Shown here one piece after another: positions 2,581 to 56,819 of a DNA stretch of 64,000 nucleotides; the stretch's first letter is position 1; each line of letters begins with the position of its first letter. A program made the translations under genes and the position numbers. This DNA comes from a virus, in IMG/VR virus record IMGVR_UViG_3300045996_002337, positions 1-64,000 of that record; one strand, given 5' to 3'. The notes under the pieces were generated by a model. That model did not search any database, was not told where the DNA came from, and saw only the letters and a list, made by a program, of their open reading frames with translations.

Positions 2581-3306
2581 TCAGTACTTGATGCCCAGCG
2601 CATCGCGCAGCGTCTGAAGATCACCTGAACCGTTGTACTCGAAGGCGATGTACTGGTCACAGTCGATCATGATCTCGGAGTCTGAAACAACTGCCTTGTC
2701 AAGATCATTGATCGTGTACTTCTTGCTCTCCATCCACTTGCCAACCAGCTCTGGATCAAAGCCTTCCTGTTCCTGATACTTGCCTGGCTTCTTGAAGATG
2801 TTGACCACGTCATTGCCTTCACGTTGCCACTGCTCATCAAAGACGTTGTTGTACAGGTCCATTACGTTTGGTGACCAGGTGTAGGTGAACTGCCCCACTG
2901 GAAAGAGCACGCAGTTGTGATTACCGTATCCCTGGGCGGTGCTACGCCCACGTTCACCATAGCAGAAGACGGCCTGGGATCGAGCTTTGATGCCCTTCTC
3001 TTCTTCAAACCAGTCGTCGATGACCTTGCTAAGCTTGGGGCTCGTGCTCATCGCTTCTCTGTCCTTGCGAACGGGCATAAGATAAACTGCCCAATCGTCG
3101 TCATTTTGGCTGCCGCTGTCACCGACCGTCACCGTACCTTGGTAATTCTTCAGCTGCTTTACACCGCGGTAGAGCAGGCCCTTCTTCCCAGACCGCTTAA
3201 GAAACGGCATGCAGTATTTTTCAATGAGCTGGCGCACGGTCATGTCCTTGCCCTCTAGCGTCATTGGGCCCTCAGTGAGGAACTCCTTGAATGTCTTATG
3301 CGTCAT
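2581..3306 (-). CDS. Packaged ADP-ribosyltransferase-like protein (R-S-E type), copy A
   Basis: A 241-residue protein. The start is set at MTHKTFKEFLTE, which is a capsid-targeting leader with an expected gp21 cut after LTE; it overlaps the preceding gene by 11 bases. ART-like motifs in order: LLYRG (Arg47, NAD-binding arginine), VRKDRE (80-84), RSQAVFC (Ser110, S-motif), FPVGQFTYTWSP (135-146), and SEIMIDC (Glu211, likely catalytic) followed by a YIAF strand. The layout matches R-S-E mono-ADP-ribosyltransferases such as T4 Alt and ModB, though it is much shorter than Alt (682). NAD-dependent modification of host proteins or RNA is inferred. Confidence 0.75.
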   Translation of the reverse strand: MTHKTFKEFLTEGPMTLEGKDMTVRQLIEKYCMPFLKRSGKKGLLYRGVKQLKNYQGTVTVGDSGSQNDDDWAVYLMPVRKDREAMSTSPKLSKVIDDWFEEEKGIKARSQAVFCYGERGRSTAQGYGNHNCVLFPVGQFTYTWSPNVMDLYNNVFDEQWQREGNDVVNIFKKPGKYQEQEGFDPELVGKWMESKKYTINDLDKAVVSDSEIMIDCDQYIAFEYNGSGDLQTLRDALGIKY

Positions 3307-3775: not shown

Positions 3776-4560
3776 GGAAGCTGATCCAGTTGGAATGGTG
3801 TTGGGCCCTCAGGATCGCGATCGGTAATTTCAACCTGCGCGTAAGGGGTGCCGAATGGGGTAATGTTTCCAGTGTCATCGACTTCAACAACGTTCATAGA
3901 GCCAATATCGCCGATCTGAATAATGATCTTACGGACCAAGTCATCCTTCACACCCATTGGAATGCTTAGCCAAATTGGGATGGTGAAATTCAGCGTCCAA
4001 ACAATCATACGACGGTCAGTTCCCGACGGGTAGTTTTCCTCATTGGAAATGTCATCAAGTGAAACAGTTGTGATTCGCGTCCAATCGAAGGCGCCATCTG
4101 ACTTCTGAATCTGCAGGTCCGGGTTAAAGAGCACGAGGATCTGTTCCAAGATCTGGTGCATTTGCTGCGTATTGGACGCGTAGATTGAAAGCTCCATCGT
4201 CATGTTGTATGGAACTGGCATCACGCGCTTGACAACGGTCAGATCATCAGGAAACACTCCACCAGTCCGCATTGTAACGCGCTGGTCAATCATGCCTGGG
4301 GACCTACGGCGCTCATCAGCTCTTGCCAAGCCTGTCATGTAGGCGGCCATGGTTGGTAACGAGAATGAGCGATTGGCAGTGTTGCCAGACATGAGCGCGG
4401 CAACAACGCGATCTTTGTTCCCAATTACGATTGGCACAGAGATGAACTCGGGAACGTCGCACTCCCCAATGCCAGTTTGCACCTGAAGTCCATGAAAGAT
4501 GGAGACGAACTGCAGCATGTACTGCCGTAGCTGTGCGTCGTAAAAGTAGTGATTGATCAT
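3772..4560 (-). CDS. gp15: Proximal tail sheath stabiliser / tail terminator (T4 gp15 family)
   Basis: The 262-residue protein (T4 gp15 is 272) forms the ring that ends the tail and docks to the neck. Its start, INHYFYDAQLRQYMLQF, parallels T4 gp15 FGYFYNSSFRRYATLM. MELSIYASNTQQMHQILEQIL parallels the T4 segment MIYELSIFTRYEDDMFQIVEQIL. WTLNFTIPIW matches the later beta strand. It is separated from gp14 by four ART genes, unlike T4, where 13-14-15 are adjacent. Confidence 0.85.
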   Translation of the reverse strand: MINHYFYDAQLRQYMLQFVSIFHGLQVQTGIGECDVPEFISVPIVIGNKDRVVAALMSGNTANRSFSLPTMAAYMTGLARADERRRSPGMIDQRVTMRTGGVFPDDLTVVKRVMPVPYNMTMELSIYASNTQQMHQILEQILVLFNPDLQIQKSDGAFDWTRITTVSLDDISNEENYPSGTDRRMIVWTLNFTIPIWLSIPMGVKDDLVRKIIIQIGDIGSMNVVEVDDTGNITPFGTPYAQVEITDRDPEGPTPFQLDQLP

Positions 4561-5225
4561 TTAATGCCTAGAAGTTTTTCGAGAAGCCCACGATGCTCCT
4601 CATATTCAAACGCGTAGTATTTAGTGCAGGCCACCATGACTTCCATGCGGCCCTGAACGGCTTTTTCCAAACCGTGATTCTGATAATCCATCTTTGTCAT
4701 AAAGAGGTCGATACCTTCTTCCGCATCTATTGTGGAGTTCAGGGGGCCGTGCGTCCAATCCCTGCCGGCAGCTTCAGCGTACAGATCAGGAACCCGTGGA
4801 GACCAGACGTATTTGAAGGTGCCAGTTGGAAAGATGATGTAGGGATCGCCGTAGTTTCTGGCAGCTCTAACACCGGCTAGAGAGCTTCCGGTGCAGAAAA
4901 CAGCAGAGGACCTGGCAGCAATGTCGAAGTTATTCTTGAACCAATTGTTGATTAGCTTGTGATCGCTTTCACTCATGTCAGATGGCTTGCGATCCTGGCG
5001 AACGTCCAGTTCATGAAAAGTGACCTTACGTTCTTCAGGAGCTTCGGGGTTTGGAAGGGCGAGGTGGCGCGCACGGTCTACTCCCTTCATACCACGGATC
5101 AAGAACCCTTGCCGTTTTGACTCCTGTAGAAAAAACGAACAGTCACGCTCTAGCATGTCCTTGAGCGCGTCGTTCCCCATGGCGGAAGTTTCCTCGGCCT
5201 CAAGGAATTTTTTGAATGTAATCAT
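4557..5225 (-). CDS. Packaged ADP-ribosyltransferase-like protein (R-S-E type), copy B
   Basis: A 222-residue protein starting MITFKKFLEAEE, a capsid-targeting leader. Motifs: FLIRG (Arg44), VRQDRKPSD (75-83), RSSAVFC (Ser106/107), FPTGTFKYVWSP (132-143), MEVMVAC (Glu195) and YYAFEY. All are in the same order and spacing as the other copies. The Arg motif has Ile where most copies have Tyr or Trp before RG. It overlaps gp15 downstream and copy C upstream by ATGA. Paralogues are divergent at sequence level, so the array is old rather than a recent duplication. Target unknown. Confidence 0.75.
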   Translation of the reverse strand: MITFKKFLEAEETSAMGNDALKDMLERDCSFFLQESKRQGFLIRGMKGVDRARHLALPNPEAPEERKVTFHELDVRQDRKPSDMSESDHKLINNWFKNNFDIAARSSAVFCTGSSLAGVRAARNYGDPYIIFPTGTFKYVWSPRVPDLYAEAAGRDWTHGPLNSTIDAEEGIDLFMTKMDYQNHGLEKAVQGRMEVMVACTKYYAFEYEEHRGLLEKLLGIK

Positions 5226-5866
5226 AGAGGTATTGCGAGATAAGTTTTGCAGCCTAGCATTATTTCCATACCACTATCGTCATAGATGGCGTTACCGAGT
5301 TCGCCATCCTGGTATTCACCGATGATGCTTTTTGTCTCTGCTGCTATCTTTGCCAGATCTTCTGCAGAATACTCTAGATTTGGTGGGCGCTTAGGAACTT
5401 TAATATCGCCATGCAGCCGAAAAATCTTGTATGTCAAGTCAGGGATAGCTGGGTTCCACAGATATTTGAAGTTGCCAATAGGCACGATCTGATGAAGTTT
5501 GCCAAAATCTGTAGCGCCATGTTTTCTCTCTTTACTAAAGCAGAAGACACCCTGAGAGCGGGGTTTCCAGCCAAATTTTTCATTGAACTGATCGTCAATG
5601 AGCTTTGAAATTTGTGGATGCGTATCCAGCGGCTTGCGATCAGTGCGTGCGGTTTTGATTAGGCAGGTTTTTATCTCACCATCAACGTTTAGCTTAACTT
5701 TTTTGTCACCATCAGATGGATTCAGCCCGCGGTACAATGGATACTCAAAGGGATCAGAAGGATCGCCATCAACCTCTGAGAGAAATGGGCGGCAGTTGTC
5801 GATGATAAAATCAGCAAGATCTATTGGCGCATCTGCCTCGGACAGGAATTTTTTGAATGTAATCAT
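5222..5866 (-). CDS. Packaged ADP-ribosyltransferase-like protein (R-S-E type), copy C
   Basis: A 214-residue protein with leader MITFKKFLSE followed by Ala, a good gp21 site. Motifs: PLYRG (Arg46), ARTDRKPLD (73-81), RSQGVFC (Ser104), VPIGNFKYLWNP, then SGMEIMLGCKTYLAIPL with Glu201 as probable catalytic residue. It is closest to copy D: both share TCLIKTART and the LGCKTYLAIP ending. It is translationally coupled to its neighbours by ATGA overlaps. Confidence 0.75.
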   Translation of the reverse strand: MITFKKFLSEADAPIDLADFIIDNCRPFLSEVDGDPSDPFEYPLYRGLNPSDGDKKVKLNVDGEIKTCLIKTARTDRKPLDTHPQISKLIDDQFNEKFGWKPRSQGVFCFSKERKHGATDFGKLHQIVPIGNFKYLWNPAIPDLTYKIFRLHGDIKVPKRPPNLEYSAEDLAKIAAETKSIIGEYQDGELGNAIYDDSGMEIMLGCKTYLAIPL

Positions 5867-6498
5867 ACGGGAATTGCCAAGTAAGTTTTGCAGCCAAGCA
5901 TGATTTCTTTAGCTTGACCAAGGATTGCGCGCTCTAGATCAGCGTCTGTGTATGTTGCGACAAGGTCTTCAATGTACGGTTTAATTTGTTCAAGCTCTTT
6001 GGGCGAGTAGGGATCGTGCTTTGCGCGCTTCTTCATATTCGAGCCTTTGAGAATACGATGCATACTATTTGTAAAGTCTCTCACATCGGGGCTCCACACG
6101 TATCTGAACTCACCAATAGGCACGATCTGGTATAGACGACCAAAATCCGACGATAGACTTTTACCGCCCTCGCCATAGCAGAAAACAGATTCTGTTCGCG
6201 GTTTCCATGCGAACCTATTCTTTAGCAGCCGGTCGGCCATGTCAGACAGCTGAGAGTGTGTGTCTCTAGGCTGGCGATTAGTCCTGGCCGTTTTGATCAA
6301 GCACGTCTTGACCTCATCCTGAACAACCATTTGAATTTTTTGCCCACCATCTTCAGCTAGACCTCGATACAGGGGGAACCCGAACGCGTCAGTGTAGTCG
6401 ATGCCCAGCTCCTCAAAGAATGGCATGCAGTTCTCTTGAAGAAAGTCATCTAAATCTGTAGGTGCAGATTCTAAAATGAATTGCTTAAATGTTTTCAT
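5863..6498 (-). CDS. Packaged ADP-ribosyltransferase-like protein (R-S-E type), copy D
   Basis: A 211-residue protein. The start is set at MKTFKQFILE (a longer frame exists), because this leader closely resembles T4 MKTYQEFIAE and the ATG overlaps the preceding stop as ATGA. Motifs: PLYRG (Arg45), ARTNRQPRD, PRTESVFC (Thr102 and Ser104 at the S-motif), VPIGEFRYVWSP, KEIMLGCKTYLAIPV (Glu198). It is the nearest relative of copy C. The Ser/Thr change in the S-motif is tolerated in known ARTs (STS/STT). Confidence 0.75.
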   Translation of the reverse strand: MKTFKQFILESAPTDLDDFLQENCMPFFEELGIDYTDAFGFPLYRGLAEDGGQKIQMVVQDEVKTCLIKTARTNRQPRDTHSQLSDMADRLLKNRFAWKPRTESVFCYGEGGKSLSSDFGRLYQIVPIGEFRYVWSPDVRDFTNSMHRILKGSNMKKRAKHDPYSPKELEQIKPYIEDLVATYTDADLERAILGQAKEIMLGCKTYLAIPV

Positions 6499-7196
6499 TC
6501 TGATAGCGCCTCGTAGATGCAACCCTCAAGATCATCAGCGGAAAAACCAGGCTTCAGTGGGAAGGCGAGATATCTATCACAAAGAAGCATCATCTCGCCG
6601 CGACCTTTTCTTAGCCCTTCAACGTTTGACCCCTTCTTAAAGTCGAGCTCCGTTAACCGGCTTTTTATCCATTCAATTTGCATATCTGCGGTTGGCTCGT
6701 TACCTGCTCCAAGCTTCTTGTTCCAATATTCTTCTCCGCCAGCCGGGCCAGAGCTTTCGCCGCTTGCCAAATTTGGAAAGAGAGAAACTGTTAGATCTGT
6801 TGCTTCATCTGACCAGTAGAGTGAGTATTTTCCCACAGGAATGATGGCGTGTGGTCGACCATATGCCCCAGCCAGGATTTTTTCCGGGTAAACAAAAAGT
6901 GAGTTAGACCGAAGTCGAACTCCGAATTTGTCTTCCAAAAAGTCATCAACTACATTGTGCGCCCACAAGGGGGTGTCTCGCGGTTCACGATCTTTACGAA
7001 CAGTGCCAAATTTGACATCCGCCTTTAGCTCATCGCGGACAGACCACTTCTCATATGATGATTGTGCACCATCCATTCCACGCCAAAGCATGTAATTTGA
7101 TTCGACGATGTCCTGACAGGCAGGCTGGCAGTTCTCACGCAAGAAGGCAACAAGCTCCCGCTTTTCTTCAGATAGAAATTGTTTGAACGTAATCAT
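6495..7196 (-). CDS. Packaged ADP-ribosyltransferase-like protein (R-S-E type), copy E
   Basis: A 233-residue protein with leader MITFKQFLSE. Motifs: MLWRG (Arg39), VRKDREPRD (67-74), LRSNSLFVY (Ser97/99), IPVGKYSLYWSD, GEMMLLCDRYLAFPL (Glu201). It differs from the other copies by a C-terminal tail of about 20 residues (ADDLEGCIYEALSE). Its start codon shares one base with the gp14 stop (TAATG), so it is coupled to gp14 translation. Confidence 0.75.
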   Translation of the reverse strand: MITFKQFLSEEKRELVAFLRENCQPACQDIVESNYMLWRGMDGAQSSYEKWSVRDELKADVKFGTVRKDREPRDTPLWAHNVVDDFLEDKFGVRLRSNSLFVYPEKILAGAYGRPHAIIPVGKYSLYWSDEATDLTVSLFPNLASGESSGPAGGEEYWNKKLGAGNEPTADMQIEWIKSRLTELDFKKGSNVEGLRKGRGEMMLLCDRYLAFPLKPGFSADDLEGCIYEALSE

Positions 7197-9085
7197 TAGA
7201 TTTTCTTTGCAGTTGGCGAGATGCGCTCGGCCATGTTAAAAATTTCCCGCTGCGAGGCCGTGTGAGCAGAGCGTTTGTTGCGGCGATCAGTTTCCACGTA
7301 CAGCCACTTGTTCTTCACCTGAGAGAATTTATAGAGACGGGCGGGCAGGTTCAAGTTTGGAGCGTACTCTAACCTGAAGTACGTGCCGTCGGCAATCCCA
7401 GCTACATCAGGGAGACGGTCGAAGCCAGTCATGTACGAACCGCCATCGGGTGGCAGACCATCCTCTACGTAGAGGCCGACGCCGTCATATGAACCTGGTT
7501 GGTTAAAGCGGTTGGTGCCAGAGGCGAACTCACGTGTATTCGTCCCAGTTTCGGGAACGGCTTGAACCGCCTCAGCTTGATTATGTTCAGTAACGGTTAG
7601 CGGTGCTGTTTCAATCTGCTCGATGCCATCAAAGAAGCGACCATCGTCAATGATGTACTTTTGGGTGTCAATCGTTCCAAGCAGGTCGCGGTGTTCCTGC
7701 GAAGGGATAAGCTGCTGCGCCTGAAAACGGTAAATTGATGGAACCCAGCCAGTGGTGTAACCATCTGCGGCCCAGCCCGTATCGGTAACCTCTAGAAATT
7801 TACGAACTGGGCGAAGGTGCTGGTCATATTGCATCTCGGAAGGTAGCTCTAGAACGTCTCCAACTACGATTGGGCGGCCAAGCTTTCGAACCATGTCAGC
7901 AAAAGAGGCAGTGAAGCTGTAGATGTCGGCCATCTGAAAACCAAACTTTGACAGGTCTGAGACAGCATCAAATGGGGTGTACTGAACCTTGAGCTGAATT
8001 GACGCTTTTGCATAGTCTCGATCGCGGTTCTCCATGAACAGCATGTCCTGGATGTCATCGAGAGTCGTAGCTTGATAATCAAACAGCTCGAGCTTTGTAA
8101 CCGCCCAAGAACTGTCAGACGTGGCTCCAGCAAATGAGGTTGGCACAAGGCGCCAGTAGCGGGACGCCGCCGATTGCTTGATGCGGATAACCGGCGAGGT
8201 TGCAGTGTTTGGAATGTTGACAACATCAACGCGCTTCCAATCCATCTCAACTGGCAGCATGAAGCTATCATCCTCTGCAAATGGGACAGAGCCTGCAGAT
8301 ACAGTAAACGATCCAAGCGTGCTGTCAAACTGACGGTTCACAGTCGCTTCACCAAGAATTGAAGTGCCAGTTGCAGACGTGAATGAGACCATGAACTTCG
8401 TTGGGGAAGTTGCAAACAGCATGAAGGCGCCCGGCTGGCTTTCAATTCCTTGTTTGAATCCACCTACCGCACCGTTACCAACGTTTGTGGAGCCGACGAC
8501 GATCTTTAGCGGGTTGATAGAGAAGTTTCCATCTGCGCGTTCGATTCGAACTTGAAGGGCGCGAGATGCAGCAGTAGCTTGCGTAATTCGAAAGGCGGTG
8601 ATGTGCTTCGCGTCAGGCGTTCCAGGGACTGTCTCTGGTTGTCCGTACGATGTTAGTCGAACTCCAAAATCATAGCCAATGTATGCAGGTTCTTGCAGTA
8701 CGGCCAAGCCTTGCTGTGGAGATGACCATTCAGATTCGGTGTCGTCGAAGGCAAGCGAAGTGTCTGATGAGCCCAGCGGTTTTCCCGTGCCAGTTTGATC
8801 AATCAGCTTTCCCTGCTCATGCACGCCAAGCAGCTTAAAGACGTTGAGGGGGGCGCCAGAGATGTTCAGCGATTCAGCGATGAGCCCCTGCTGATACGTG
8901 TTTTCTGTTACCGCGCATGCACCCTGTGTAATTGTGTACGTGCCGACGCAAAACTCTGGCGGCACGTACGTTCCTGGGGGCGTTGGGGTACCAGGAACAG
9001 GCGGGAGTCCACTGTCGGGCGTAGTTGGATTGTTGAATGACCCGGCAGCGTCAAGGCATTCATCTAAGGTTGTACGATCAGCCAC
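7196..9085 (-). CDS. Neck protein, gp14-like, with large N-terminal extension
   Basis: A 629-residue protein between gp13 and gp15 homologues. Residues about 375-480 carry the gp14-like part: MADIYSFTASFADMVRKLG, then VVGDVLELPSEMQY, then VPSIYRFQAQQLIPSQEH, like the T4 gp14 block GDLIYFPMDNSLFEI...DPFYQLGQNAIRKI. T4 gp14 is only 256 residues. The N-terminal extension looks like a discoidin (F5/8C)-type beta sandwich (YIGYDFG, ITAFRIT, WRLVPTSFAG, WAVTKLELFDY). It is split by the shared beta insert found in the sheath (VGNG ... GSFTVSAGSVPFAEDDSF). It may form neck appendages that bind sugars. The gp14 call rests on context and weak motifs. Confidence 0.65.
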   Translation of the reverse strand: MADRTTLDECLDAAGSFNNPTTPDSGLPPVPGTPTPPGTYVPPEFCVGTYTITQGACAVTENTYQQGLIAESLNISGAPLNVFKLLGVHEQGKLIDQTGTGKPLGSSDTSLAFDDTESEWSSPQQGLAVLQEPAYIGYDFGVRLTSYGQPETVPGTPDAKHITAFRITQATAASRALQVRIERADGNFSINPLKIVVGSTNVGNGAVGGFKQGIESQPGAFMLFATSPTKFMVSFTSATGTSILGEATVNRQFDSTLGSFTVSAGSVPFAEDDSFMLPVEMDWKRVDVVNIPNTATSPVIRIKQSAASRYWRLVPTSFAGATSDSSWAVTKLELFDYQATTLDDIQDMLFMENRDRDYAKASIQLKVQYTPFDAVSDLSKFGFQMADIYSFTASFADMVRKLGRPIVVGDVLELPSEMQYDQHLRPVRKFLEVTDTGWAADGYTTGWVPSIYRFQAQQLIPSQEHRDLLGTIDTQKYIIDDGRFFDGIEQIETAPLTVTEHNQAEAVQAVPETGTNTREFASGTNRFNQPGSYDGVGLYVEDGLPPDGGSYMTGFDRLPDVAGIADGTYFRLEYAPNLNLPARLYKFSQVKNKWLYVETDRRNKRSAHTASQREIFNMAERISPTAKKI

Positions 9086-10013
9086 GTGATCTCCGTTGGG
9101 TGTGAGTTAGGGCATCAGCCGCGCTGATCTTATCAGGTTCAACGCGCCCGTCTTCCTCATCTTCAGGTTCGTCGATCCAGAACTGGCTCACCAGCAGCTT
9201 ATGAAGCTTAGGTGCATTTTCCTTAGACCAATCGAGAATCTCAAATTGATCAGTTGCTGAAATGCTGCTTTGATTGACGGGGATGAAAAGCGCCTCGCCA
9301 TCGACCCACACCTCGCCCTTCGTTGAGGTGGGCAGGTTTCCACCAGTCGCGAAGTCGTAAAGTGAAGGCGTAACAAGCTTTTCCCAAAGATCGAAGAGAT
9401 TGTCGACTTTGTGTCTGTTCATCATATCAACCAGCGTGGCGGGTGGGCCACGGAAGCCTTTCGCGCGAAGCTTATCATCCCACTGCGAAACGCTGGCCTG
9501 CTTAAGGCTGTCCCTAAGCTCGGCAAAGCTGGTCGGATAGTCATTCAGTTCAAGAAATTCAAGTGCGGCCTGAGTCATTTCATTGAAGTGCAGCAGGCGG
9601 GTGTCGTCAATCTTGGTCGCCCAGATGTCGGGGGTCTTGACTAGACCAATTTTTGCGTCATCCTTTGGGATAACAATGAACTGTTCGCCGTATCGAGCTG
9701 CTTGTTCAGGATTTGTCGTCGTGATGAATGCATTACCCCGACGTGGCAGGCCCTTCCAATCAGGGTGGTTGTCCATCCACAGGGTGTAGTAGTTGGCAGT
9801 GTTCGCACTTTTACGCGGTGCTCCGTGGCTTGCATCGCCATGTGTGACGCCCTGGTGTCGTTGGCCACCCGCCCCACGAAACAGGAAGACCCCCTTCTTC
9901 AGGTAGTCTTCAGCATAGTTTTCCATCCACTTGACGGCGTAGTCGACCTCAATCGGCGCTACACGTGACTGGCGCTCTTCTTCCTCACGGAGATATTGCT
10001 TAAAGGTGATCAT
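9078..10013 (-). CDS. Packaged ADP-ribosyltransferase-like protein, second subfamily, copy F
   Basis: A 311-residue protein with leader MITFKQYLRE. It forms a pair with copy G, apart from copies A-E. Shared features are FRG/VRG (Arg46 here), a block RKSANT..NYYTLWMDNH..WKG (67-88), a Ser/Thr strand GNAFITTT (Thr98/99), YGEQFIVIPKDDAKI (108-122), and a C-terminal GEVWVDGEALFIP that could hold the catalytic Glu. A long helical region separates these parts. R-S-E chemistry is likely but less certain than in A-E. Confidence 0.65.
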   Translation of the reverse strand: MITFKQYLREEEERQSRVAPIEVDYAVKWMENYAEDYLKKGVFLFRGAGGQRHQGVTHGDASHGAPRKSANTANYYTLWMDNHPDWKGLPRRGNAFITTTNPEQAARYGEQFIVIPKDDAKIGLVKTPDIWATKIDDTRLLHFNEMTQAALEFLELNDYPTSFAELRDSLKQASVSQWDDKLRAKGFRGPPATLVDMMNRHKVDNLFDLWEKLVTPSLYDFATGGNLPTSTKGEVWVDGEALFIPVNQSSISATDQFEILDWSKENAPKLHKLLVSQFWIDEPEDEEDGRVEPDKISAADALTHTQRRSRG

Positions 10014-10870
10014 GACGTGATTTCAATCTCATGCTTATTGAGGAATTCTTGGAAGAGCGCTGCAGCAGCGCTATCGCCGTGCGCAAGGCTATAGGAAATA
10101 AAGATGCAGCGTCCTTGAATGAAAAGCTCGCGCTCGCCATCCGCCAGGTATTTACTTGGGTTCGAAAAGAGCTCGAATTCAGAAGGCTCGATGACCTTCT
10201 CGAAAAGCTCATATACGCTCTCAACTGCCGCGTCGTCAATAAGGTTCATCAAGTCTAGCAAGTAGGGCGCGTTACCAGAACGGCTGTCCTTCTCCTCATT
10301 ATACAGAAAGCTTACATGATCAAACGTAAGCTTCTTCAAAGTTCTAACCAGCTCAGGGTACGTTTCAGGCGGCTCTTGCCCGTTTGCCTTGATGCCGCTG
10401 TGCACAATTTTCATGAAACGCGCCAGGTTTCCGGAAGGCATGATGTTGCGTAGTTCTTCGAATGACGTCCAAAGATCCTCATCAGCGCAGGCGGCGATCT
10501 TTGCATCATCAAATGGAAAGACGAGGTACGGCTTACCAAAACCACTTGCTATATTTGATGTTTCAGAGCAGATGAATGAACGAGACCGCTTTGGCCAGCC
10601 CTTCCAAGCTTCATGGTTGTCCATCCACAGCGTGTAGTAATTGAACGTGTTCGCAGAACGGCGAGCTTCACCCGCTTCGCTGTCACCAATTCCAGCTTCA
10701 CCATTTAGATTGAAGCCACGAACAATATCACCAACACCCGGCGCTTTTAGAAATTTTTGACAGTACTTTTCAATAAGGTCAATTGCCTCTACGATTTCGA
10801 GAGGTGACACTCGAGATGGTGCGTCGTATTGAATTGCACCCTCACCAAGAAATTGTTTGAATGTGATCAT
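10010..10870 (-). CDS. Packaged ADP-ribosyltransferase-like protein, second subfamily, copy G
   Basis: A 286-residue protein with leader MITFKQFLGE, encoded right after gp13. It matches copy F in RRSANTFNYYTLWMDNHEAW (70-89), RSRSFICSET (95-104, S-motif), FGKPYLVFPFDDAKI (111-125) and a C-terminal GERELFIQGRCIFIS block. VRG supplies Arg51. The conserved SANT..NYYTLWMDNH block has no counterpart in copies A-E and could bind a distinct target. It overlaps copy F by ATGA. Confidence 0.65.
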   Translation of the reverse strand: MITFKQFLGEGAIQYDAPSRVSPLEIVEAIDLIEKYCQKFLKAPGVGDIVRGFNLNGEAGIGDSEAGEARRSANTFNYYTLWMDNHEAWKGWPKRSRSFICSETSNIASGFGKPYLVFPFDDAKIAACADEDLWTSFEELRNIMPSGNLARFMKIVHSGIKANGQEPPETYPELVRTLKKLTFDHVSFLYNEEKDSRSGNAPYLLDLMNLIDDAAVESVYELFEKVIEPSEFELFSNPSKYLADGERELFIQGRCIFISYSLAHGDSAAAALFQEFLNKHEIEITS

Positions 10871-19896: not shown

Positions 19897-20403
19897 ATGA
19901 TCACATTCAAGCAATACCTTCGTGAAGACACCCTCCCAAAACTGGCATGGGATCCAACCCCAAAAATCGGTTGGTGGCGAGATGCTGACCCACTTCGTCT
20001 ATATCATGGAACCAACCTAGCGCACCTAGATTCATTTGCTGAGCACGGCATGAACCGTCCAGACCCTCGAACAGGAATGTACTCATTCGCCTTTGAACCA
20101 TTCACGGCCCGGGCTTTCGCGATCATGGGCGGAGAGGCACGCCTTCTAGCGTCCAAGGCAAAGCCAGGTGTAGTACCCGAAAATCAACGGGTTGTGATCG
20201 TTTTCGATATTCCGCAGGATTGGATTGAACGCCATCAAGATCTTGATCTACGTGGCAATGATGAAGAACACCTGTCCCGTCTTCAGGACAAATCAAAGTA
20301 TGACGGCTGGAAGGGTTCTGATCAGCAGTACTATCAGCTGTGTGAGCTGCGCGTGGACGCAGCTGTGCCTGCGAAGTTCATCGCAGGCTACATGCTCAAA
20401 TAA
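19897..20403 (+). CDS. Packaged ART-like protein of a different (H-Y-E-like) type
   Basis: A 168-residue protein with leader MITFKQYLRE, identical in its first ten residues to ART copy F. The body differs: LRLYHGTNLAHLDSFAEHGM (His37), MYSFAFEPFTARAFAIMGGE (61-80), RVVIVFDIP, and YQLCELRVDAAVPAKFIAGY (Glu150). YHGT, then SF...A..yA, then E-[LV]-x-V...I fits the H-Y-E branch of ADP-ribosyltransferases (PARP/KptA/DarT-like) better than R-S-E. It is a lone plus gene in a minus region. NAD use and target are inferred. Confidence 0.7.
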   Translation: MITFKQYLREDTLPKLAWDPTPKIGWWRDADPLRLYHGTNLAHLDSFAEHGMNRPDPRTGMYSFAFEPFTARAFAIMGGEARLLASKAKPGVVPENQRVVIVFDIPQDWIERHQDLDLRGNDEEHLSRLQDKSKYDGWKGSDQQYYQLCELRVDAAVPAKFIAGYMLK

Positions 20404-30522: not shown

Positions 30523-31137
30523 TTACTTACCTTTGCGAAGCGCTTCAAGGAATGCAGACATTTCTTTCTTAAAGAATGCCTGCGCTTTTGGATCGTGGAC
30601 CATTGCTTCAGCAAGCGTCATGACCTTCTTGGAACCCATTGCTTCAGCGATGACGTCAGGGTAAGCGTCAGGTGCCGAAGGCTGGGAAACGATGTCGACT
30701 GTTACGAACGAGAAGTCGGCAACTTGGCCAGACTCATTCACGTTACCCGTACCACGCGACGAGACGCCGAGGCGAACGCCACCCTCAATCAGGCCTTTGG
30801 CGATGTTACCAGAAGGGGTGTTGAGCAGCTTCATCTTGCCGACGGCGTTGTTGCCGTCCATGCGGCACTCAGTGATAGCGTGCGAGACGTTCGCAAGGTT
30901 GATCGAGAGAACATCAGGGTGATTCAGTTCACCGAGAATGTAGTGGCCTTCCTTGATGCGCTTAGCAGCTTCATCAACGGCGCGAGAAATTTCCTCGAGG
31001 GGGTAAACACGGCCGTTACCGTTCTTAAGGGCGGCCTGCATCATGATACCGTTGAGGTACAGTTGACCTCCAACGTTCTGTTCAGTGAGGCGCGCAGCAG
31101 TTGGATTCAGGTGTTCGGAGAGAAGTTGTTGCTTCAT
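30523..31137 (-). CDS. gp21: Prohead protease (T4 gp21 family)
   Basis: The 204-residue maturation protease (T4 gp21 is 212). LYLNGIMMQAALKNGNGRVY followed by P, then GHYILGELNHPDVLSIN (catalytic His73), then VRLGVSSRGTG (catalytic Ser126/127), then DIVSQPSAPDAYPD match gp21. It cuts after (L/I)xE and should process gp23, gp22 and the leader-bearing internal proteins listed here. Its own start, MKQQLLSE, also contains such a site, consistent with self-activation. Confidence 0.95.
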   Translation of the reverse strand: MKQQLLSEHLNPTAARLTEQNVGGQLYLNGIMMQAALKNGNGRVYPLEEISRAVDEAAKRIKEGHYILGELNHPDVLSINLANVSHAITECRMDGNNAVGKMKLLNTPSGNIAKGLIEGGVRLGVSSRGTGNVNESGQVADFSFVTVDIVSQPSAPDAYPDVIAEAMGSKKVMTLAEAMVHDPKAQAFFKKEMSAFLEALRKGK

Positions 31138-38403: not shown

Positions 38404-39024
38404 TTAAGCGAGGCCTGCTTTACGCTTTAGCGATTCGAGGCACGAATCATAGCGTGTTGCCCATGAAGTCATTTGCTTAAGAAGACCTGCTGCCCAGTCC
38501 TTGAGCTTCATCAGGTTGTCCATGATGCCTTCGCTTACGACTTCCTTGGAAACGGACAGACGCTTCGTTGGTGCTTTTGGAGGAATGACCTTCGTGTACT
38601 TTGCGGTGATCTCGTCAACCTTTGCCTGAAGCTCGTTGGGAATCAGAACAGAGAGCGCTGCGATGATCGACTTGTAGTCGACCTCAGTGCTACCCTCAGC
38701 CTTCTGGACTTCCTTCGCGAGGGTCAGAGTGAACTGCGCAGTCTCAACTACGCGGGTGAGAACTACGTCTTCGGCGTCAAAGAGGCCACCGACGTCTTCC
38801 TTCAAGCGCGAATTGAGCTCGTCATGCTTTTCTTTCATGGCCTTGAGACTGACTTCCAGGCGGGCATAGCGCTTAGCAAGCTTTGTCATGTTGGCAGCAT
38901 CAGCGCCCTTCAAAGTTGCGGTAACCCGGTCAAGTGTGTCCTTAACCTTTTTCTCAGTGTACTTGACACCAGGTTGGCGGGCTTCACTAAGGAAGAGATG
39001 TTCTTTGAAGGTGATGTGTTTCAT
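38404..39024 (-). CDS. Putative internal head protein, helical
   Basis: A 206-residue protein with leader MKHITFKEHLFLSE followed by Ala. Long lysine-rich helices (residues 20-75 and 115-150) suggest a coiled-coil bundle. A second gp21-type site lies at VVSE followed by Gly (near residue 166), so the mature protein may be cut twice. The late promoter is at 39052-39059. Resembles T4 IPIII in size and charge only. Confidence 0.75.
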   Translation of the reverse strand: MKHITFKEHLFLSEARQPGVKYTEKKVKDTLDRVTATLKGADAANMTKLAKRYARLEVSLKAMKEKHDELNSRLKEDVGGLFDAEDVVLTRVVETAQFTLTLAKEVQKAEGSTEVDYKSIIAALSVLIPNELQAKVDEITAKYTKVIPPKAPTKRLSVSKEVVSEGIMDNLMKLKDWAAGLLKQMTSWATRYDSCLESLKRKAGLA

Positions 39025-40516: not shown

Positions 40517-40524
40517 TATTTACT
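40517..40524 (-). promoter_or_regulatory. Late promoter octamer
   Basis: AGTAAATA on the minus strand, 25 bases before the nuclease gene at 40492. Confidence 0.5.
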
Positions 40525-41230
40525 GTGCCCGGTTGATCAGTTTCTTGATAAGCCCTCTGTGCATGCCTTCGTCAAGCGCATAGTACTTGTCGCACACTAC
40601 CATCATTTCATTGCCAGTTGACAACGCCTGAGCCAGCCCCTCATCGAACTTGTATATCTCAGCACCGTGGTGCTCGATGATGTACTCCATCACTTTCACC
40701 TGTTGTTCCCATTTCAAGTCTCTGAACTCCACCCACCCATCTTCTTCTCCATCATCAGCCTGAGGGTACCGGAAGTCTAAAGTCTCAATCGTTTTCTCTA
40801 CGAGCTTAGTGAAGGCACGATTGCTAAACGACCCATCTTCAAAAACTGAAAATGCGTCTGCCACGAGTGGTGACCAGGCATAATGCCACTCACCTATTGG
40901 AAACATAGCATGCACGATACCGTAGTCGGCCGCAACGATCTTACTGGTAGAGCAGAATACTGATGCTGAACGTAGCGGGACCCCGACAGCCTTCGTAAAC
41001 ATGCCGTTGAGAGCGTCGTGAAGCCAATCACTTGAATCTTTGGACCGGCGGTCATTACGGACGCCCACGATGTAAGCACCCGTTTCAATTTCGCGAGACA
41101 GGCGCGATTGGGCGGGATAGAGTCCTCGATACACTGGCTTATTGACGGCGTCGAGGAAAGGCTTGCAGTCCCGATTGATCACAGCTGCAATGTCATCCGG
41201 GCCCTCATTGAGCAGTTCGAAGATTTTCAT
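40520..41230 (-). CDS. Packaged ADP-ribosyltransferase-like protein (R-S-E type), copy H
   Basis: A 236-residue protein with leader MKIFELLNE followed by Gly. Motifs: PVYRG (Arg35), VRNDRRSKDSS (58-68), LRSASVFC (Ser88/90), FPIGEWHYAWSP (110-121), and NEMMVVCDKYYALDE (Glu208). It belongs with copies A-E and the copy at 56091, with which it shares FPIG..QY/HY-WSP..ADA. It lies in an operon of four leader-bearing genes. Confidence 0.75.
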   Translation of the reverse strand: MKIFELLNEGPDDIAAVINRDCKPFLDAVNKPVYRGLYPAQSRLSREIETGAYIVGVRNDRRSKDSSDWLHDALNGMFTKAVGVPLRSASVFCSTSKIVAADYGIVHAMFPIGEWHYAWSPLVADAFSVFEDGSFSNRAFTKLVEKTIETLDFRYPQADDGEEDGWVEFRDLKWEQQVKVMEYIIEHHGAEIYKFDEGLAQALSTGNEMMVVCDKYYALDEGMHRGLIKKLINRAQ

Positions 41231-41562
41231 TTCTTTACATCGGGCTTGTAGGCCTTGAGCTGACCCTTCAACTGCTCGATGCCCTGTTTTGTTTCACGCA
41301 GCTCACGACTCAGGCCGTACAGGTCCTTGACGTTTTCGACACCGACCCAAATGTTGTACTCTTTTGGGTTGTTCAGGTTGTTCAGGTTGCCGCTGTGGAT
41401 GTGTTGACGATACAGGCTAGGAAGCGTCGAGGACAGCTCCTTGACTTCACGCATTGCCTGCTCAACCTTTTCGATTTTCTTTTCAACCTTCAACAGAACC
41501 TTGAGCAGTTCTTGTGGGGACTTGCCCTCAGCCTCAGATAGGAGTTCTTTGAGAATTGACAT
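41227..41562 (-). CDS. Putative internal head protein, coiled coil
   Basis: A 111-residue protein with leader MSILKELLSE followed by Ala, one of the clearest gp21 sites. The rest is a coiled coil (LLKVEKKIEKVEQAMREVKE and LSRELRETKQGIEQLKGQLK) around a short loop with NLNNLNN. Function unknown. Confidence 0.75.
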   Translation of the reverse strand: MSILKELLSEAEGKSPQELLKVLLKVEKKIEKVEQAMREVKELSSTLPSLYRQHIHSGNLNNLNNPKEYNIWVGVENVKDLYGLSRELRETKQGIEQLKGQLKAYKPDVKK

Positions 41563-41564
41563 GA

Positions 41565-42050
41565 TCAGGTCTTTTTCGTATAATTGTTGTCGAAGAAGTT
41601 GGCGCGCTCCACGGTATAGGTGAAGTCGTTGCCATCGTCTTGGCGAAGCAGGTAATCGCCCTTGTTTAGCTTAACTGTTTGACCACCTGGGTTCTCACCA
41701 TCCGTCGAAGCACCGAGCGTGACTTTCACAGGATCGCCACCGTACTTGAACGCGTCATAAACGTCAGCCGAACGATAGGCTAAGAAGCCCTCGGCATCAG
41801 GTCTCTGATTGGGGCGAATTGGCGCGAAAGCTGCATTCAGATCTTCCTCGTCCATGACGCCGTAGGGCTTACGCTTGCCCTTGTCATCGAAGAGGACCTC
41901 GTAGCGATTAGCGTCGCCCCTGAGAGGGCGAACATAATAAACGGTGGTCGTGATAAACTGGGAGGCATCTGAACCAAGTTCGGCCCAAATTTCCTCGGCG
42001 GAGCGAGTTTGAATTGGCTCTTCAAAGAGCTTGAGTTCGTGTAGCTTCAT
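41565..42050 (-). CDS. Putative internal head protein
   Basis: A 161-residue acidic beta-rich protein with a leader-like start MKLHELKLFEE followed by Pro. Segments such as VYYVRPLRGDANRYEVLFDD and TVKLNKGDYLLRQDDG suggest small barrels. It lies between two leader-bearing genes. No known family. Confidence 0.7.
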   Translation of the reverse strand: MKLHELKLFEEPIQTRSAEEIWAELGSDASQFITTTVYYVRPLRGDANRYEVLFDDKGKRKPYGVMDEEDLNAAFAPIRPNQRPDAEGFLAYRSADVYDAFKYGGDPVKVTLGASTDGENPGGQTVKLNKGDYLLRQDDGNDFTYTVERANFFDNNYTKKT

Positions 42051-42697
42051 TTGTTTTTGACCACCACGGTGAGCCAGCCCTTTTCGCCGGTAAAATACTC
42101 GATGTCTACCTTGTAGAACTTGGAGAGCTTTGCAACCTTGTCCTCAATCGCTTTTCGTGTGGCAGCTGTTGGGACTTGGAAATCGTTGTCACCATCGTCG
42201 TACCAGTCATCGCCATGATCTTCCCGATCATAGTTGTCAGACGGTTCATCTTCCCAGACACCCCAATCTCGGAATTCAAACACGTAGGCGCCAGCGGCAT
42301 CCTTCTCCGGTTTGTGGTCCTGATGGCTCCAGCGCGCTTGCGCATCATTCTTGAAAGAATCGTACACATGACCAGCTGTGATTCGCAGCTGGCTATCGGT
42401 CAGCGAGCCGCGCGGCTCAGCCTTAGGTTCTTCCTTCTTTGGCTCTTCCTTTGCGGGTGCCTTAGCATCTGCATGATCATCAGGAATGAGGCTGACCCGG
42501 CCCTTACCGGTCTTGTTCTTGTGCGCGGCTGCAGGAATGGTGACGTCGAGCTCACGTGCAAGAGCTACGACGTCAGACCATTTGATGTCCTTCACGGCTT
42601 GTGCACCGTACTTCTTTTTGGCGGCGGCATAGAAGTCGTTCATTGTCGACCGCTTCGCCATTTCGCCAAGTTGCAATAGCTCTTTGAGAATCAGCAT
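42047..42697 (-). CDS. Putative internal head protein
   Basis: A 216-residue protein with leader MLILKELLQLGE. Residues 15-75 form a helical, basic domain (MNDFYAAAKKKYGAQAVKDI). A Lys/Glu/Pro linker (APAKEEPKKEEPKAEP) follows, then a very acidic C-terminal domain (NYDREDHGDDWYDDGDNDF) ending in beta strands. The two-domain layout with linker suits an injected effector. Late promoter at 42721-42728. Confidence 0.75.
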   Translation of the reverse strand: MLILKELLQLGEMAKRSTMNDFYAAAKKKYGAQAVKDIKWSDVVALARELDVTIPAAAHKNKTGKGRVSLIPDDHADAKAPAKEEPKKEEPKAEPRGSLTDSQLRITAGHVYDSFKNDAQARWSHQDHKPEKDAAGAYVFEFRDWGVWEDEPSDNYDREDHGDDWYDDGDNDFQVPTAATRKAIEDKVAKLSKFYKVDIEYFTGEKGWLTVVVKNK

Positions 42698-46823: not shown

Positions 46824-47519
46824 ATGGAAGAATTCATTTTTGAGGCGACGGTCGGTCCACAGAAGAAACGCGCGGCGGTTATGATTGGGCGGCTCAACCC
46901 ACCTACCGCAGGACACTATCGTGTGATGGACGCCATGAAGGCCTTCATTCGGGAAGAGCGTGACCTAAAGCTAGATGCTGCCGTGGTTGTCATCGTTGCT
47001 GGTGAAAAGAGCAGTCAGGATAAAGAGAAGAACCCACTTACGGCTGAAGAACGGGTTAAGTTTATCGAGGCATCGGGTAGGGCCAACGGCATCAAGATTC
47101 TAACTGCGCCATCAGGTTTTGCTGCGTTCGAGGAGGTTCGAAAGGCAGGGTTTGAGCCAATCGCCATCGCCGCCGGCTCTGACCGGGCTGACAACTACAT
47201 TGAGCTCCTTGACAAGTACTTCCTTAACGCCGATGGAGAAAAGCTCAAGCACGTAAAAATTGATGGGTTAGACCGAGAGGGCGTTGAAGGAAAGAGCGCT
47301 CAGCGGAAAAGTACGATGGAAAAAGCGCTCGATGACCTGAAACAAGGCGGGGAGCTTGACCTGGCTGAAGTTTCAGGTTCGATGGCGAGACGGGCAGTTG
47401 AGCTTGGTTATGCAGAGGAGTTTGCACAGATCGTCGGGCTAGAGAAGAAGCCGCGCCTTGCCCAGCTCATGTTCAATAAGGTGAAGGCAGCAATGAATAG
47501 TGAGGAATCAAATGTCTGA
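46824..47519 (+). CDS. Nucleotidyltransferase (NMNAT/cytidylyltransferase-like)
   Basis: A 231-residue protein of the HxGH nucleotidyltransferase superfamily: VMIGRLNPPTAGHYRVMDAM (the T/HxGH motif at about 28-31), VVVIVAGEKSSQDKEKNPLT, PIAIAAGSDRADNY, and EVSGSMARRAVELG (an ISGTxxR-like motif near 182). Members make NAD, FAD, CDP- or ADP-linked compounds. The start MEEFIFE followed by Ala looks like a short capsid leader. If it makes NAD it could feed the ARTs; this is speculation. Confidence 0.75.
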   Translation: MEEFIFEATVGPQKKRAAVMIGRLNPPTAGHYRVMDAMKAFIREERDLKLDAAVVVIVAGEKSSQDKEKNPLTAEERVKFIEASGRANGIKILTAPSGFAAFEEVRKAGFEPIAIAAGSDRADNYIELLDKYFLNADGEKLKHVKIDGLDREGVEGKSAQRKSTMEKALDDLKQGGELDLAEVSGSMARRAVELGYAEEFAQIVGLEKKPRLAQLMFNKVKAAMNSEESNV

Positions 47520-55400: not shown

Positions 55401-56094
55401 GGCATGGGAAGTTGGGGCATTTGTTGACAACAGCCTCACCTACGGCCGCCGCCTAACTATGCCCGGCGAGGGCGGCGAAGGTCTTGATTTTATGTGGCAG
55501 CACTTCTCACCACACACGAACATCATCGACCCTTCACCAACAAACATTCATGATGCGTATGTCATGACACGCGGTTATTATGACAATGTAATCAGTTATG
55601 TGCGCGGCACATCTACATATGCGCCGGCCCCACCGACGCCGCTTGAGCTTCGCAACTCTTACGGTTACCTCTTGGAAAACAAGATGCTGTCGGACACGAT
55701 CGTGATGCATCCAGGCAAGATTCGGCTGCTCTTTGGAGGGCTGGCTGAGCCACAACTTCGCGCGAAGTTTAAGGTCGTTCGCTCGCAGGCCGGCACTCTC
55801 ACGAACGAGCGCCTCAAGGAAGAAATTTTAAACGTTATCAATACGTTCTTTGACATCGACAACTGGGACTTCGGCGATACATTCTACGCCACAAAGCTGA
55901 TCTCGTTGATTCATCAACGCCTGCCCGCAGATATTGCCTCTGTGGTGTTGGTGCCGGTTTACAGCACGAACTCATTCGGCTCGCTGTTCACAGTCGAGCC
56001 AGGCTTTGATGAAATCCTACAATCGGCAGCTGAGCTTAGCGACATTGAGGTTGTTGAATCCCTTACGCCAACAATCATTAGGCAGGCCAAATGA
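52489..56094 (+). CDS. gp6: Baseplate wedge protein (gp6-like), very long
   Basis: A 1,201-residue protein (T4 gp6 is 660). The N-terminal region is gp6/gpJ-like: DSIKQSLIDYTKTYYPEVFS, ESSEFIAMLEMFAYVAEQLA followed by YRVDMVAHENFI, TAQRKQSILRLAKLISYKAT. The C-terminus has PGKIRLLFGGLAEPQLRAKF, then LISLIHQRLPADIASVVLVP, again wedge-like. Residues about 650-745 carry the shared beta insert (GIGNGDIVI ... LFFTITQGTTAFEQGDAFIL). gp6 forms the inner baseplate ring. Confidence 0.9.
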   Translation: MALRTTNSAESWEKIYQAYNEVSFVSYDFDSIKQSLIDYTKTYYPEVFSDYIESSEFIAMLEMFAYVAEQLAYRVDMVAHENFITTAQRKQSILRLAKLISYKATRNIPVRGLVKFNSVTTTERILDSRGTDLSGLTITWNDPNNANWKEQFILVMNRVLSNRFGQPSKSFQIGDVVMDLYSLRNDPDGLRNGVFPFSAAAGLDTYPMEIVPSDLDENGPFEREPDLTSPMSIIYANDGIGDGSDYTGFLGYVKQGTLTRIDYNIAAKQPDRRVDFQPTDINQTDVWVQKIENDSVSERWKQVSTISEQNLVFNELRDTRKKFEVDTRENDQITVIFGDGDFSDMPHGQFRFWMRQSANRSIVVQKNKIQNEPFGFSYTSTLGNTETCTFTFGLTTTLQNGAASETIEHIRQSAPSTYYAQNRMVNGQDHNTYMLKDPTIIRLKTINRTFAGQPKHIDWHDASGKYENIKLFGDDLSMQYTLGISSQTTSVSGQSLIDSVIEPLLSSSGVINALLHTSATDPVMAGVISAPRRKFIEDNRGNIYRNKDGAPVALISTATADGSLKEKTAIQGLIDRHWYGEPLEYVQDEASGTVMARIPDPDDFPKDDSRIYAASVPRTIDGVNKFPPGDIGSGLQPIAEQDYFALRYNRYMQGIGNGDIVIQSAPQGTTPAEVWTIEVAADGVTIDVRSNLRGTFPSGSIGTDYYIQPEGFQDRRLFFTITQGTTAFEQGDAFILENGDDLSATPPSPRATFPWLQNGSMFSPTAPVVNLNGWWEILGYSQLPDYASGILESEHHDLKFTSSAADQGDALKQHSWMIFIRKVRQQPTNTIIGYEIHNRDLKLTVTSPTTKFWYNSVDQVLDNETKNRVFDNIKVLRSNKDAQGNVLAKSQKYDVVGAVKNEDGVIDFNSLEVVPTDLLQEDSSGDLVPDRLLQFETFAASSTAEASYEYFELENPGQVLIEQAALDAANSAWEVGAFVDNSLTYGRRLTMPGEGGEGLDFMWQHFSPHTNIIDPSPTNIHDAYVMTRGYYDNVISYVRGTSTYAPAPPTPLELRNSYGYLLENKMLSDTIVMHPGKIRLLFGGLAEPQLRAKFKVVRSQAGTLTNERLKEEILNVINTFFDIDNWDFGDTFYATKLISLIHQRLPADIASVVLVPVYSTNSFGSLFTVEPGFDEILQSAAELSDIEVVESLTPTIIRQAK

Positions 56095-56819
56095 AAATCA
56101 CTGAACTTCTTGCAGAAGACATCTCTCAGCTTAATGTTCTCATCAAGCTCCTGAAGCGGGACTGCGCCCCGTTTTTACGCGAAGTAGAGGCCCCGCTATA
56201 TCGCGGCATATACACCCGCAGCTCGTCCCTGAAGAAGATGGGCCCCGATTTGTTTCGTGGCACTGTTCGCAAAGATCGGCGGCCAAAGGACTCAAGTGAG
56301 GAACTCAATGCGAATTTGAACATGGGCATTGAGCGACACTTGGGCATTAAAAACGCTCGTGATACCTCATTATTTTGCTCGTTTTCAATGTCGCAAGCTA
56401 ACTCTTATGGCACCGAGGTTTTCTTGGTCTTTCCGATTGGCGATTTTCAGTACATCTGGTCACCCTTCATCGCAGATGCTTATGCCGCCCTTGAAGATAA
56501 CTGGGGTGATTGGGATGACAGCGTTGCGTTTTACGTAGATCGCGTTATTGCGTCGCTCGCCCTCAAAAATGATGACGACGAGCCGATGGAATACTGGGAT
56601 ATTCATGATCGTGAAATGCAAGAAAACATCGTCCATCACCTGATGTTTGATTACGCAGACAAAATTTATCGAACTAACAGGATCAAGGCGGCGTACAACA
56701 CGTCAAATGAGATTATGGTGCAGTGCGATCACTACTATGCGATTTCTGTTGGCACCCTTTATAAGCACTATGAGGTTAGCCCCGATGAACTCATGAAAGC
56801 CCTTCATGGTGCTAGCTGA
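56091..56819 (+). CDS. Packaged ADP-ribosyltransferase-like protein (R-S-E type), copy I
   Basis: A 242-residue protein with leader MKITELLAE followed by Asp. Motifs: PLYRG (Arg38), VRKDRRPKDSS (59-69), ARDTSLFC (Thr92/Ser93), FPIGDFQYIWSP (114-125) and NEIMVQCDHYYAISV (Glu207). It is closest to copy H (40520). It lies in the baseplate operon between gp6 and the giant protein, coupled to gp6 by ATGA, so it is expressed late with the virion. Confidence 0.75.
   Translation: MKITELLAEDISQLNVLIKLLKRDCAPFLREVEAPLYRGIYTRSSSLKKMGPDLFRGTVRKDRRPKDSSEELNANLNMGIERHLGIKNARDTSLFCSFSMSQANSYGTEVFLVFPIGDFQYIWSPFIADAYAALEDNWGDWDDSVAFYVDRVIASLALKNDDDEPMEYWDIHDREMQENIVHHLMFDYADKIYRTNRIKAAYNTSNEIMVQCDHYYAISVGTLYKHYEVSPDELMKALHGAS

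What the first reader, a model, noticed from the sequence alone, without database searches (positions are those of the whole stretch)
40520..41230. A new-looking ART subfamily signature: [FIV]P[VIT]G-x3-Y-x-WSP with VRxDR-x-[PSA]-x-D
Copies A, B, C, D, E, H and I share, between the Arg and Glu motifs, a DR.P.D stretch and FPIG..xY.WSP..xD, then E-[IMV]-M-x3-C-x2-Y-[YL]-A. These blocks are not part of the textbook R-S-E definition. They may define a phage-specific family with its own substrate pocket.
Basis: seen in the sequence. Interest (0 to 1): 0.75.

Follow-up and report, generated by a model that had tools for sequence, protein, structure and literature searches.

The report
Head-packaged ADP-ribosyltransferase-like phage effector family
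A giant bacterial virus carries 13 related copies of an undescribed enzyme-like protein, most tagged to be packed in its head and probably injected into the host; they resemble ADP-ribosyltransferases in motif order, but that chemistry is not shown.

Summary
The ORF at 40520-41230 (-) and six other window ORFs share the DR.P.D, FPxG..Y.WSP and E[IMV]M..C..Y blocks. An HMM from the seven finds 255 ORFs, redundancy included, in 82 searched sequences. Alignment of 121 non-redundant members gives R87 and E208 100%, R61 and D125 98%, R35 88%. They match only PHROGs of unknown function (11975, 15932, 12810) and no Pfam or NCBIfam family. The family occurs in 4-15 copies in each of 17 phage records drawn from its hits, 13 in this 349,660-base phage.

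They match the T4 capsid-targeting sequence (M-x-T-F-K-x-[FY]-[LI]-x-E), ending at a prohead-protease-type (L/I)xE site. The tag is phage-specific, is shared with unrelated proteins, and co-occurs with a gp21-type protease. In Atu_ph07 the tandem array lies inside a published virion-protein cluster. So these are most likely head-packaged proteins injected with the DNA.

ADP-ribosyltransferase chemistry is plausible from motif order and predicted secondary structure but unproven. Two confident AlphaFold models match no solved ADP-ribosyltransferase in Foldseek, and the serine motif is only about 62-67% kept. Verdict: a new variant of a known kind (T4 Alt-like injected effectors).

The parts
40520..41230 (-). 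Copy H, the ORF of the finding: 236-aa protein, N-terminal tag plus ART-like domain
   Evidence: phrog_11975 E=2.8e-27; AF2 model pLDDT 90.5, pTM 0.84
41204..41230 (-). Capsid-targeting-like tag of copy H, MKIFELLNE (residues 1-9), ending at an L-x-E site
   Evidence: E9 kept in 92% of 121 members; low model confidence over residues 1-10; T4 CTS rule from PMC9026906
41126..41128 (-). R35 in VYRG, candidate Arg of the R-S-E triad, on the first strand
   Evidence: R in 88%; most of the others have YSGR, K or H
41048..41050 (-). R61 of the VRxDRxPxD block
   Evidence: 98% conserved
40970..40972 (-). R87 of RSxSVF
   Evidence: 100% conserved in 121 members
40943..40951 (-). S94-T95-S96, candidate STS motif at the end of the second core strand
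   Evidence: S or T at position 94 in 67% of the family
40892..40903 (-). FPIG (residues 110-113)
   Evidence: P111 98%, G113 88%
40856..40858 (-). D125 after YxWSP
   Evidence: 98% conserved
40607..40609 (-). E208, candidate catalytic Glu at the start of a core strand (EMMVVC)
   Evidence: 100% conserved; hhalign places it on the Glu strand of T4 ModB (Prob 4.5% only)
2581..3306 (-). Copy A; ATG start MTHKTFKEFLTE (longer TTG ORF to 3459 unlikely)
   Evidence: phrog_11975 5e-27; sequence read
4557..5225 (-). Copy B (MITFKKFLEAE)
   Evidence: phrog_11975 9e-29
5222..5866 (-). Copy C (MITFKKFLSE)
   Evidence: phrog_11975 1.5e-33
5863..6498 (-). Copy D (MKTFKQFILE); sister of C
   Evidence: phrog_11975 1e-29; tag pattern hit; tree
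6495..7196 (-). Copy E (MITFKQFLSE)
   Evidence: phrog_11975 4e-20; tag pattern hit
9078..10013 (-). Copy F, related subfamily (MITFKQYLRE)
   Evidence: phrog_12810 3e-31; homologous to the H type
10010..10870 (-). Copy G, related subfamily (MITFKQFLGE) with R, RS, PKRS, D, E invariants
   Evidence: phrog_12810 5e-35; hhalign 99.5%; A7 invariants
56091..56819 (+). Copy I (MKITELLAE)
   Evidence: phrog_11975 9e-32
19897..20403 (+). Tagged protein MITFKQYLRE followed by an H-Y-E-style ART-like domain (LYHGT)
   Evidence: tag pattern hit; ART-PolyVal E=0.012, below cut-off
41227..42697 (-). Three small ORFs next to H with tag-like starts (MSILKELLSE, MKLHELKLFEE, MLILKELLQLGE)
   Evidence: sequence; no informative family match
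30523..31137 (-). gp21-type prohead protease, the enzyme expected to cut the tags
   Evidence: phrog_207 head maturation protease E=1e-55

Best explanation
The ORF belongs to an expanded family of small internal head proteins of jumbo T4-like phages. Each has an N-terminal capsid-targeting tag of about 10 residues. The tag draws it into the prohead core and is cut off after (L/I)xE by the gp21-type protease. The mature domain is packed with the DNA, injected at infection and acts on the host at once. The domain most likely binds NAD+ through R35, with R61 and R87 as extra basic contacts, and uses E208 to transfer ADP-ribose to host targets, as T4 Alt does. Having 13 diverged copies would let one phage hit several targets or track host variants. 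Shown here: the family, its conservation, the tag and its phage-specificity, co-occurrence with the protease, and the predicted secondary structure. Inferred: packaging, injection, NAD chemistry and targets.
For: Tag: E at its end in 109 of 118 members and L/I two residues earlier in 101 of 118; T4 ipII and ipIII begin MKTYQEFIAE|A and ipI begins MKTFKEF. T4 capsid-targeting work puts targeting at residues 4 and 7 and processing at 8 and 10, with gp21 cutting after L/I-X-E (PMC9026906); MITFKQFLSE fits each position. Tag identity is 0.49 within a genome against 0.24 between genomes (largest of 2,000 permutation differences 0.08), while bodies are 0.33 against 0.29. (L/I)xE near the start: 143/188 family ORFs against 102/482 others, p=1e-39 (the 'others' include non-genes). 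The DNA form of the tag occurs 6 times in 349,660 bases, 0 for the control pattern. Unrelated proteins carry the same tag, including a zeta-toxin-like kinase. Protease in 10 of 12 records. Atu_ph07: the array is CDS about 55-66 by my count from the record, inside cluster CDS 31-76, in which 29 virion proteins were identified by mass spectrometry (PMC6102473). ART-like: R, S/T, E order with each on or next to a core strand in models of pLDDT 90.5 and 92.3; E208 100%; position 35 is R, or K/H, or YSGR with the Arg two residues on; phage ARTs are often head-packaged (PMC9503650).
Against: Foldseek finds no solved structure for either model (best E 0.24 and 0.49; no ART listed), though no known ART was run as a positive control. 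The profile match to T4 ModA/B is 4.5% probability. R/H + S/T + E all hold in only 75 of 121 members. R61, R87 and D125, which textbook ARTs do not need, are conserved better than R35. Virion identity of each Atu_ph07 paralogue could not be read (supplement not available). Copy B's tag lacks a clean (L/I)xE.
Confidence: 0.62

Rival explanations
1. Packaged and injected effector, but not an ART: a distinct enzyme with an unrecorded fold and an Arg/Arg/Asp/Glu active site.
For: Two confident models match nothing in PDB; significant BFVD matches (E<=1e-3) are jumbo or uncultured phage proteins, those named being uncharacterised family members. The best conserved residues are R61, R87, D125 and E208, not R-S-E.
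Against: The order YRG strand, then F-x-[ST] strand, then Glu strand is that of R-S-E ARTs, and H or K replaces R as across the ART superfamily. Two ART-PolyVal proteins appear among the weak BFVD matches (ranks 37 and 41, E about 1, not significant).
Confidence: 0.27
2. Non-enzymatic internal proteins, such as prohead core filler or DNA-binding proteins, or stoichiometric inhibitors like T4 IPI.
For: T4 IPI-III carry such tags and IPI is a restriction inhibitor (PMC9026906); copy numbers of 4-15 genes per phage.
Against: Invariant polar residues spread along the chain but placed at strand ends look like an active site; paralogues diverge to 25-36% identity yet keep them.
Confidence: 0.09
3. 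Ordinary members of the T4 Alt or Mod families.
For: Same delivery logic as Alt; Alt itself begins MELITELFDE.
Against: No match to phrog_802 or phrog_832, which T4 Alt and ModA/B hit at 1e-262 to 1e-33; size and motif context differ.
Confidence: 0.02

Closest known systems
T4 Alt (phrog_802, ADPrib_exo_Tox PF03496)
   Same: N-terminal tag cut by gp21, packaged in the head, injected, R-S-E active site (PMC9026906, PMC9503650)
   Different: 682 aa, single gene, canonical STS and ExE; no detectable sequence relation to this family
T4 ModA and ModB (phrog_832)
   Same: About 200-aa domain with LYRG, F-x-x-S and Glu strand in the same order
   Different: Not tagged and not packaged; profile match only 4.5%
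T4 internal proteins IPI, IPII, IPIII
   Same: Near-identical tag (MKTFKEF, MKTYQEFIAE) and delivery logic
   Different: Mature parts are unrelated; IPI is an inhibitor, not an enzyme
phrog_11975, phrog_15932, phrog_12810
   Same: These are this family
   Different: Listed as unknown function; phrog_12810 also contains a fused zeta-toxin-like kinase region
ART-PolyVal (PF18760)
   Same: Phage-delivered ARTs of the polyvalent proteins; weak match to the tagged protein at 19897-20403
   Different: H-Y-E type; does not match the H-type family

Membership tests
ADP-ribosyltransferase superfamily, R-S-E clade | Arg on the first core strand | tested here: met
   R35 88%, else mostly YSGR, K or H; strand E33-37 / E38-42
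ADP-ribosyltransferase superfamily, R-S-E clade | S-T-S type motif on the second core strand | tested here: inconclusive
   STS in copy H, S/T in 67% at position 94, FxTG commonest overall; the F/G subfamily has SFICSTS
ADP-ribosyltransferase superfamily, R-S-E clade | Catalytic Glu at the start of a late core strand | tested here: met
   E208 100%; strand from about 209 / E160-164
ADP-ribosyltransferase superfamily, R-S-E clade | ExE or QxE (Arg-specific enzymes) | tested here: not met
   Position 206 is mainly G, K, R or D; this bears on substrate, not on superfamily membership
ADP-ribosyltransferase superfamily, R-S-E clade | ART fold (split two three-stranded sheets) | tested here: inconclusive
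   Element order fits, but Foldseek finds no ART and no known ART was run as control; coordinates not available
ADP-ribosyltransferase superfamily, R-S-E clade | Profile similarity to described ART families | tested here: inconclusive
   None found; T4 ModA/B also lack Pfam matches and Alt vs Mod fails too
ADP-ribosyltransferase superfamily, R-S-E clade | NAD+-dependent transfer or hydrolysis | not testable with these tools
   Needs protein
T4-type internal head proteins with capsid-targeting sequence | N-terminal tag of about 10 residues with T4 determinants and (L/I)xE site | tested here: met
T4-type internal head proteins with capsid-targeting sequence | gp21-type protease in the same phage | tested here: met
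   Window 30523-31137; 10 of 12 records
T4-type internal head proteins with capsid-targeting sequence | Present and cleaved in virions, ejected into the host | not tested
   Only cluster-level proteomics read for Atu_ph07 (PMC6102473); supplement not available

The most novel reading that the evidence does not exclude
A previously undescribed enzyme superfamily, or a deeply diverged ART branch with a five-residue Arg/Arg/Arg/Asp/Glu centre, forms a many-copy arsenal that giant phages load into their heads through an interchangeable 10-residue tag, beside tagged kinases and H-Y-E-type ART-like proteins. A minimal form has escaped to bacterial plasmids next to a protein kinase.
Probability: 0.4. 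Interest if true: 0.8.

Novelty: new variant of a known kind. Interest (0 to 1): 0.6.

Why it matters
If right, reading the tag gives a sequence-only way to list everything a jumbo T4-like phage injects. It also points to a large set of uncharacterised host-takeover enzymes (4-15 per genome) whose targets, activity and host responses can be tested directly. It extends the T4 Alt theme from one injected enzyme to a diversified arsenal.

Tried and rejected
Membership of a described family: rejected, no Pfam or NCBIfam match, PHROGs of unknown function only. Consensus-sequence, profile and PDB sequence searches: nothing meaningful; hits fell in the helical insert or to designed helical proteins. 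Profile test against T4 Alt and Mod: uninformative because the positive control failed. Foldseek on both models against PDB: nothing. Refolding a compact member (L042) to avoid the insert did not help. Bacterial genomes: two genome-contig scans confirmed no relative. Searching the library for an earlier description of this family gave none; subscription papers are not held.

Full report
What is there. The window is bases 1-64000 of a 349,660-base virus record with T4-type head genes: major head protein 27276-28544, prohead protease 30523-31137 and portal 31176-32828. The ORF of the finding, 40520-41230 on the minus strand, encodes 236 residues. Copies F and G belong to a related subfamily (phrog_12810; hhalign 99.5%). 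Four more copies lie elsewhere in the record, 13 in all. The exact motifs as written are too strict: 28 of 121 relatives keep [FIV]P[VIT]G-x3-Y-x-WSP, and the Glu block has two, not three, residues before Cys.

Distribution. A scan of viral contigs gave 70 loci, and an HMM of the seven copies then found 255 ORFs, redundancy included, in the sequences held. Among named phages only Agrobacterium phage Atu_ph07 and Salicola phage SCTP-2 have relatives; both are jumbo phages, with 12 copies each. All 17 records examined, themselves chosen because they had hits, have 4-15 copies. Nearest neighbours in a tree lie in the same genome for 43% of multi-copy members against 3% expected, so the family grows by repeated local duplication on top of old divergence. 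The only homologue seen outside phages is a 150-residue untagged protein on two Pantoea agglomerans plasmids, HMM E=1.9e-18, directly upstream of a protein kinase gene.

Conserved residues. In 121 non-redundant members R87 and E208 are invariant; R61, P111 and D125 are 98%, G36 96%, C22, G104 and C213 93-94%, and R35 88%. The search pattern itself contained the Glu block, which favours E208 in the first hit of each locus, but the tandem neighbours were found by HMM alone. The F/G subfamily keeps the same set (R51, R70, R95, D132, E248). Where R35 is lost, the sequence is often YSGR, with Arg two residues further along the strand, or K or H.

The N-terminal tag. The first ten residues of most copies read M-x-T-F-K-x-[FY]-[LI]-x-E, or M-K-I-x-E-L-L-x-E in H and I. 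T4 internal proteins II and III begin MKTYQEFIAE|A and I begins MKTFKEF. A review of T4 head assembly (PMC9026906) states that the first 10 residues of IPIII suffice for packaging, that residues 4 and 7 matter for targeting and 8 and 10 for processing, and that gp21 cuts after L/I-X-E. The tag is more alike within a phage than between phages, while the bodies hardly differ in that respect. It is carried by unrelated proteins of the same phage, for example a zeta-toxin-like kinase at about 341.8-342.5 kb and an H-Y-E-style ART-like protein at 19897-20403. Its DNA form occurs six times in the record and its control pattern not at all; five of the six are starts of ORFs read in the window, the sixth is the kinase. 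Both models have low confidence over the tag and high confidence after it. A gp21-type protease is found in 10 of 12 records. In Atu_ph07 the tandem array falls, by my count from the first CDS of the record, at about CDS 55-66, inside cluster CDS 31-76, in which 29 proteins were identified in virions, only two of them predicted structural (PMC6102473). Packaging is therefore likely (about 0.9); injection follows from the T4 precedent.

The enzyme question. Two AlphaFold models, copy H (pLDDT 90.5, pTM 0.84) and a compact relative (92.3, 0.87), show helix-helix-strand(YRG)-strand-long helix-strand(VFx[ST])-helix-strand(FPIG)-strand(YxWS)-helices-strand(E-x-M)-strand. Against it, Foldseek finds no solved structure for either model, and its significant BFVD matches are jumbo or uncultured phage proteins, those named being uncharacterised. 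The profile match to T4 ModA/B covers only the Glu strand with 4.5% probability, but Alt against Mod gives 1.7%, so that test says little. T4 ModA and ModB also lack Pfam matches, so the lack of Pfam matches here says little either. Membership of the ART superfamily is unproven (about 0.65); working like T4 Alt, as an injected effector, is better supported.

Comparison with the literature. A survey of viral NAD+ systems already reports that phage ARTs are enriched in myoviruses and often head-packaged, naming Alt/VIP2, Mod, N4-like, PART, ORF28 and p0068 families (PMC9503650), and a jumbo-phage survey notes several ARTs per phage (PMC7824862). I found no description of this family in the library, although the two surveys' supplements were not read and may include some members. 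The general idea, a packaged ART, is known; the family, its many copies and its portable tag appear new. Hence 'new variant of a known kind'.

Copy H and its neighbours. H lies apart from the A-G array, next to three small ORFs with tag-like starts (41227-42697), none with an informative match.

Noticed in passing
window 19897-20403 (+): Tagged (MITFKQYLRE) protein with LYHGT, weak ART-PolyVal match (E=0.012); probably an H-Y-E-type injected ART.
   Followed up: partly
L112:5791-6525 (-), record 341.8-342.5 kb: Tagged zeta-toxin/polynucleotide-kinase-like protein (Zeta_toxin 2.9e-12). The same kinase region lies beside an F/G-type domain in phrog_12810, and an Atu_ph07 protein named Zeta toxin domain-containing matches the family fold.
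   Followed up: partly
L113:5929-7458 (Pantoea agglomerans plasmid NZ_CP134730.1; same protein in NZ_CP134739.1): 150-aa untagged homologue directly followed by a Ser/Thr protein kinase gene; looks like a two-gene module, perhaps toxin and kinase.
   Followed up: partly
window 41227-42697 (-), 29876-30517 (-), 38404-39024 (-), 3296-3775 (-): Further ORFs with tag-like N termini ending in L-x-E (MSILKELLSE, MKLHELKLFEE, MLILKELLQLGE, MSILKELVGLRE, MKHITFKEHLFLSE, MKITELFE) and no informative family: likely more head cargo.
   Followed up: no
window 46824-47519 (+): Nucleotidylyltransferase nearest to NMN adenylyltransferases, below cut-off; possible NAD+ supply.
   Followed up: no
L015 4499-5155, L022 6654-7307: Family members with YHGT instead of YRG, the residue swap that separates H-Y-E from R-S-E ARTs.
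   Followed up: no
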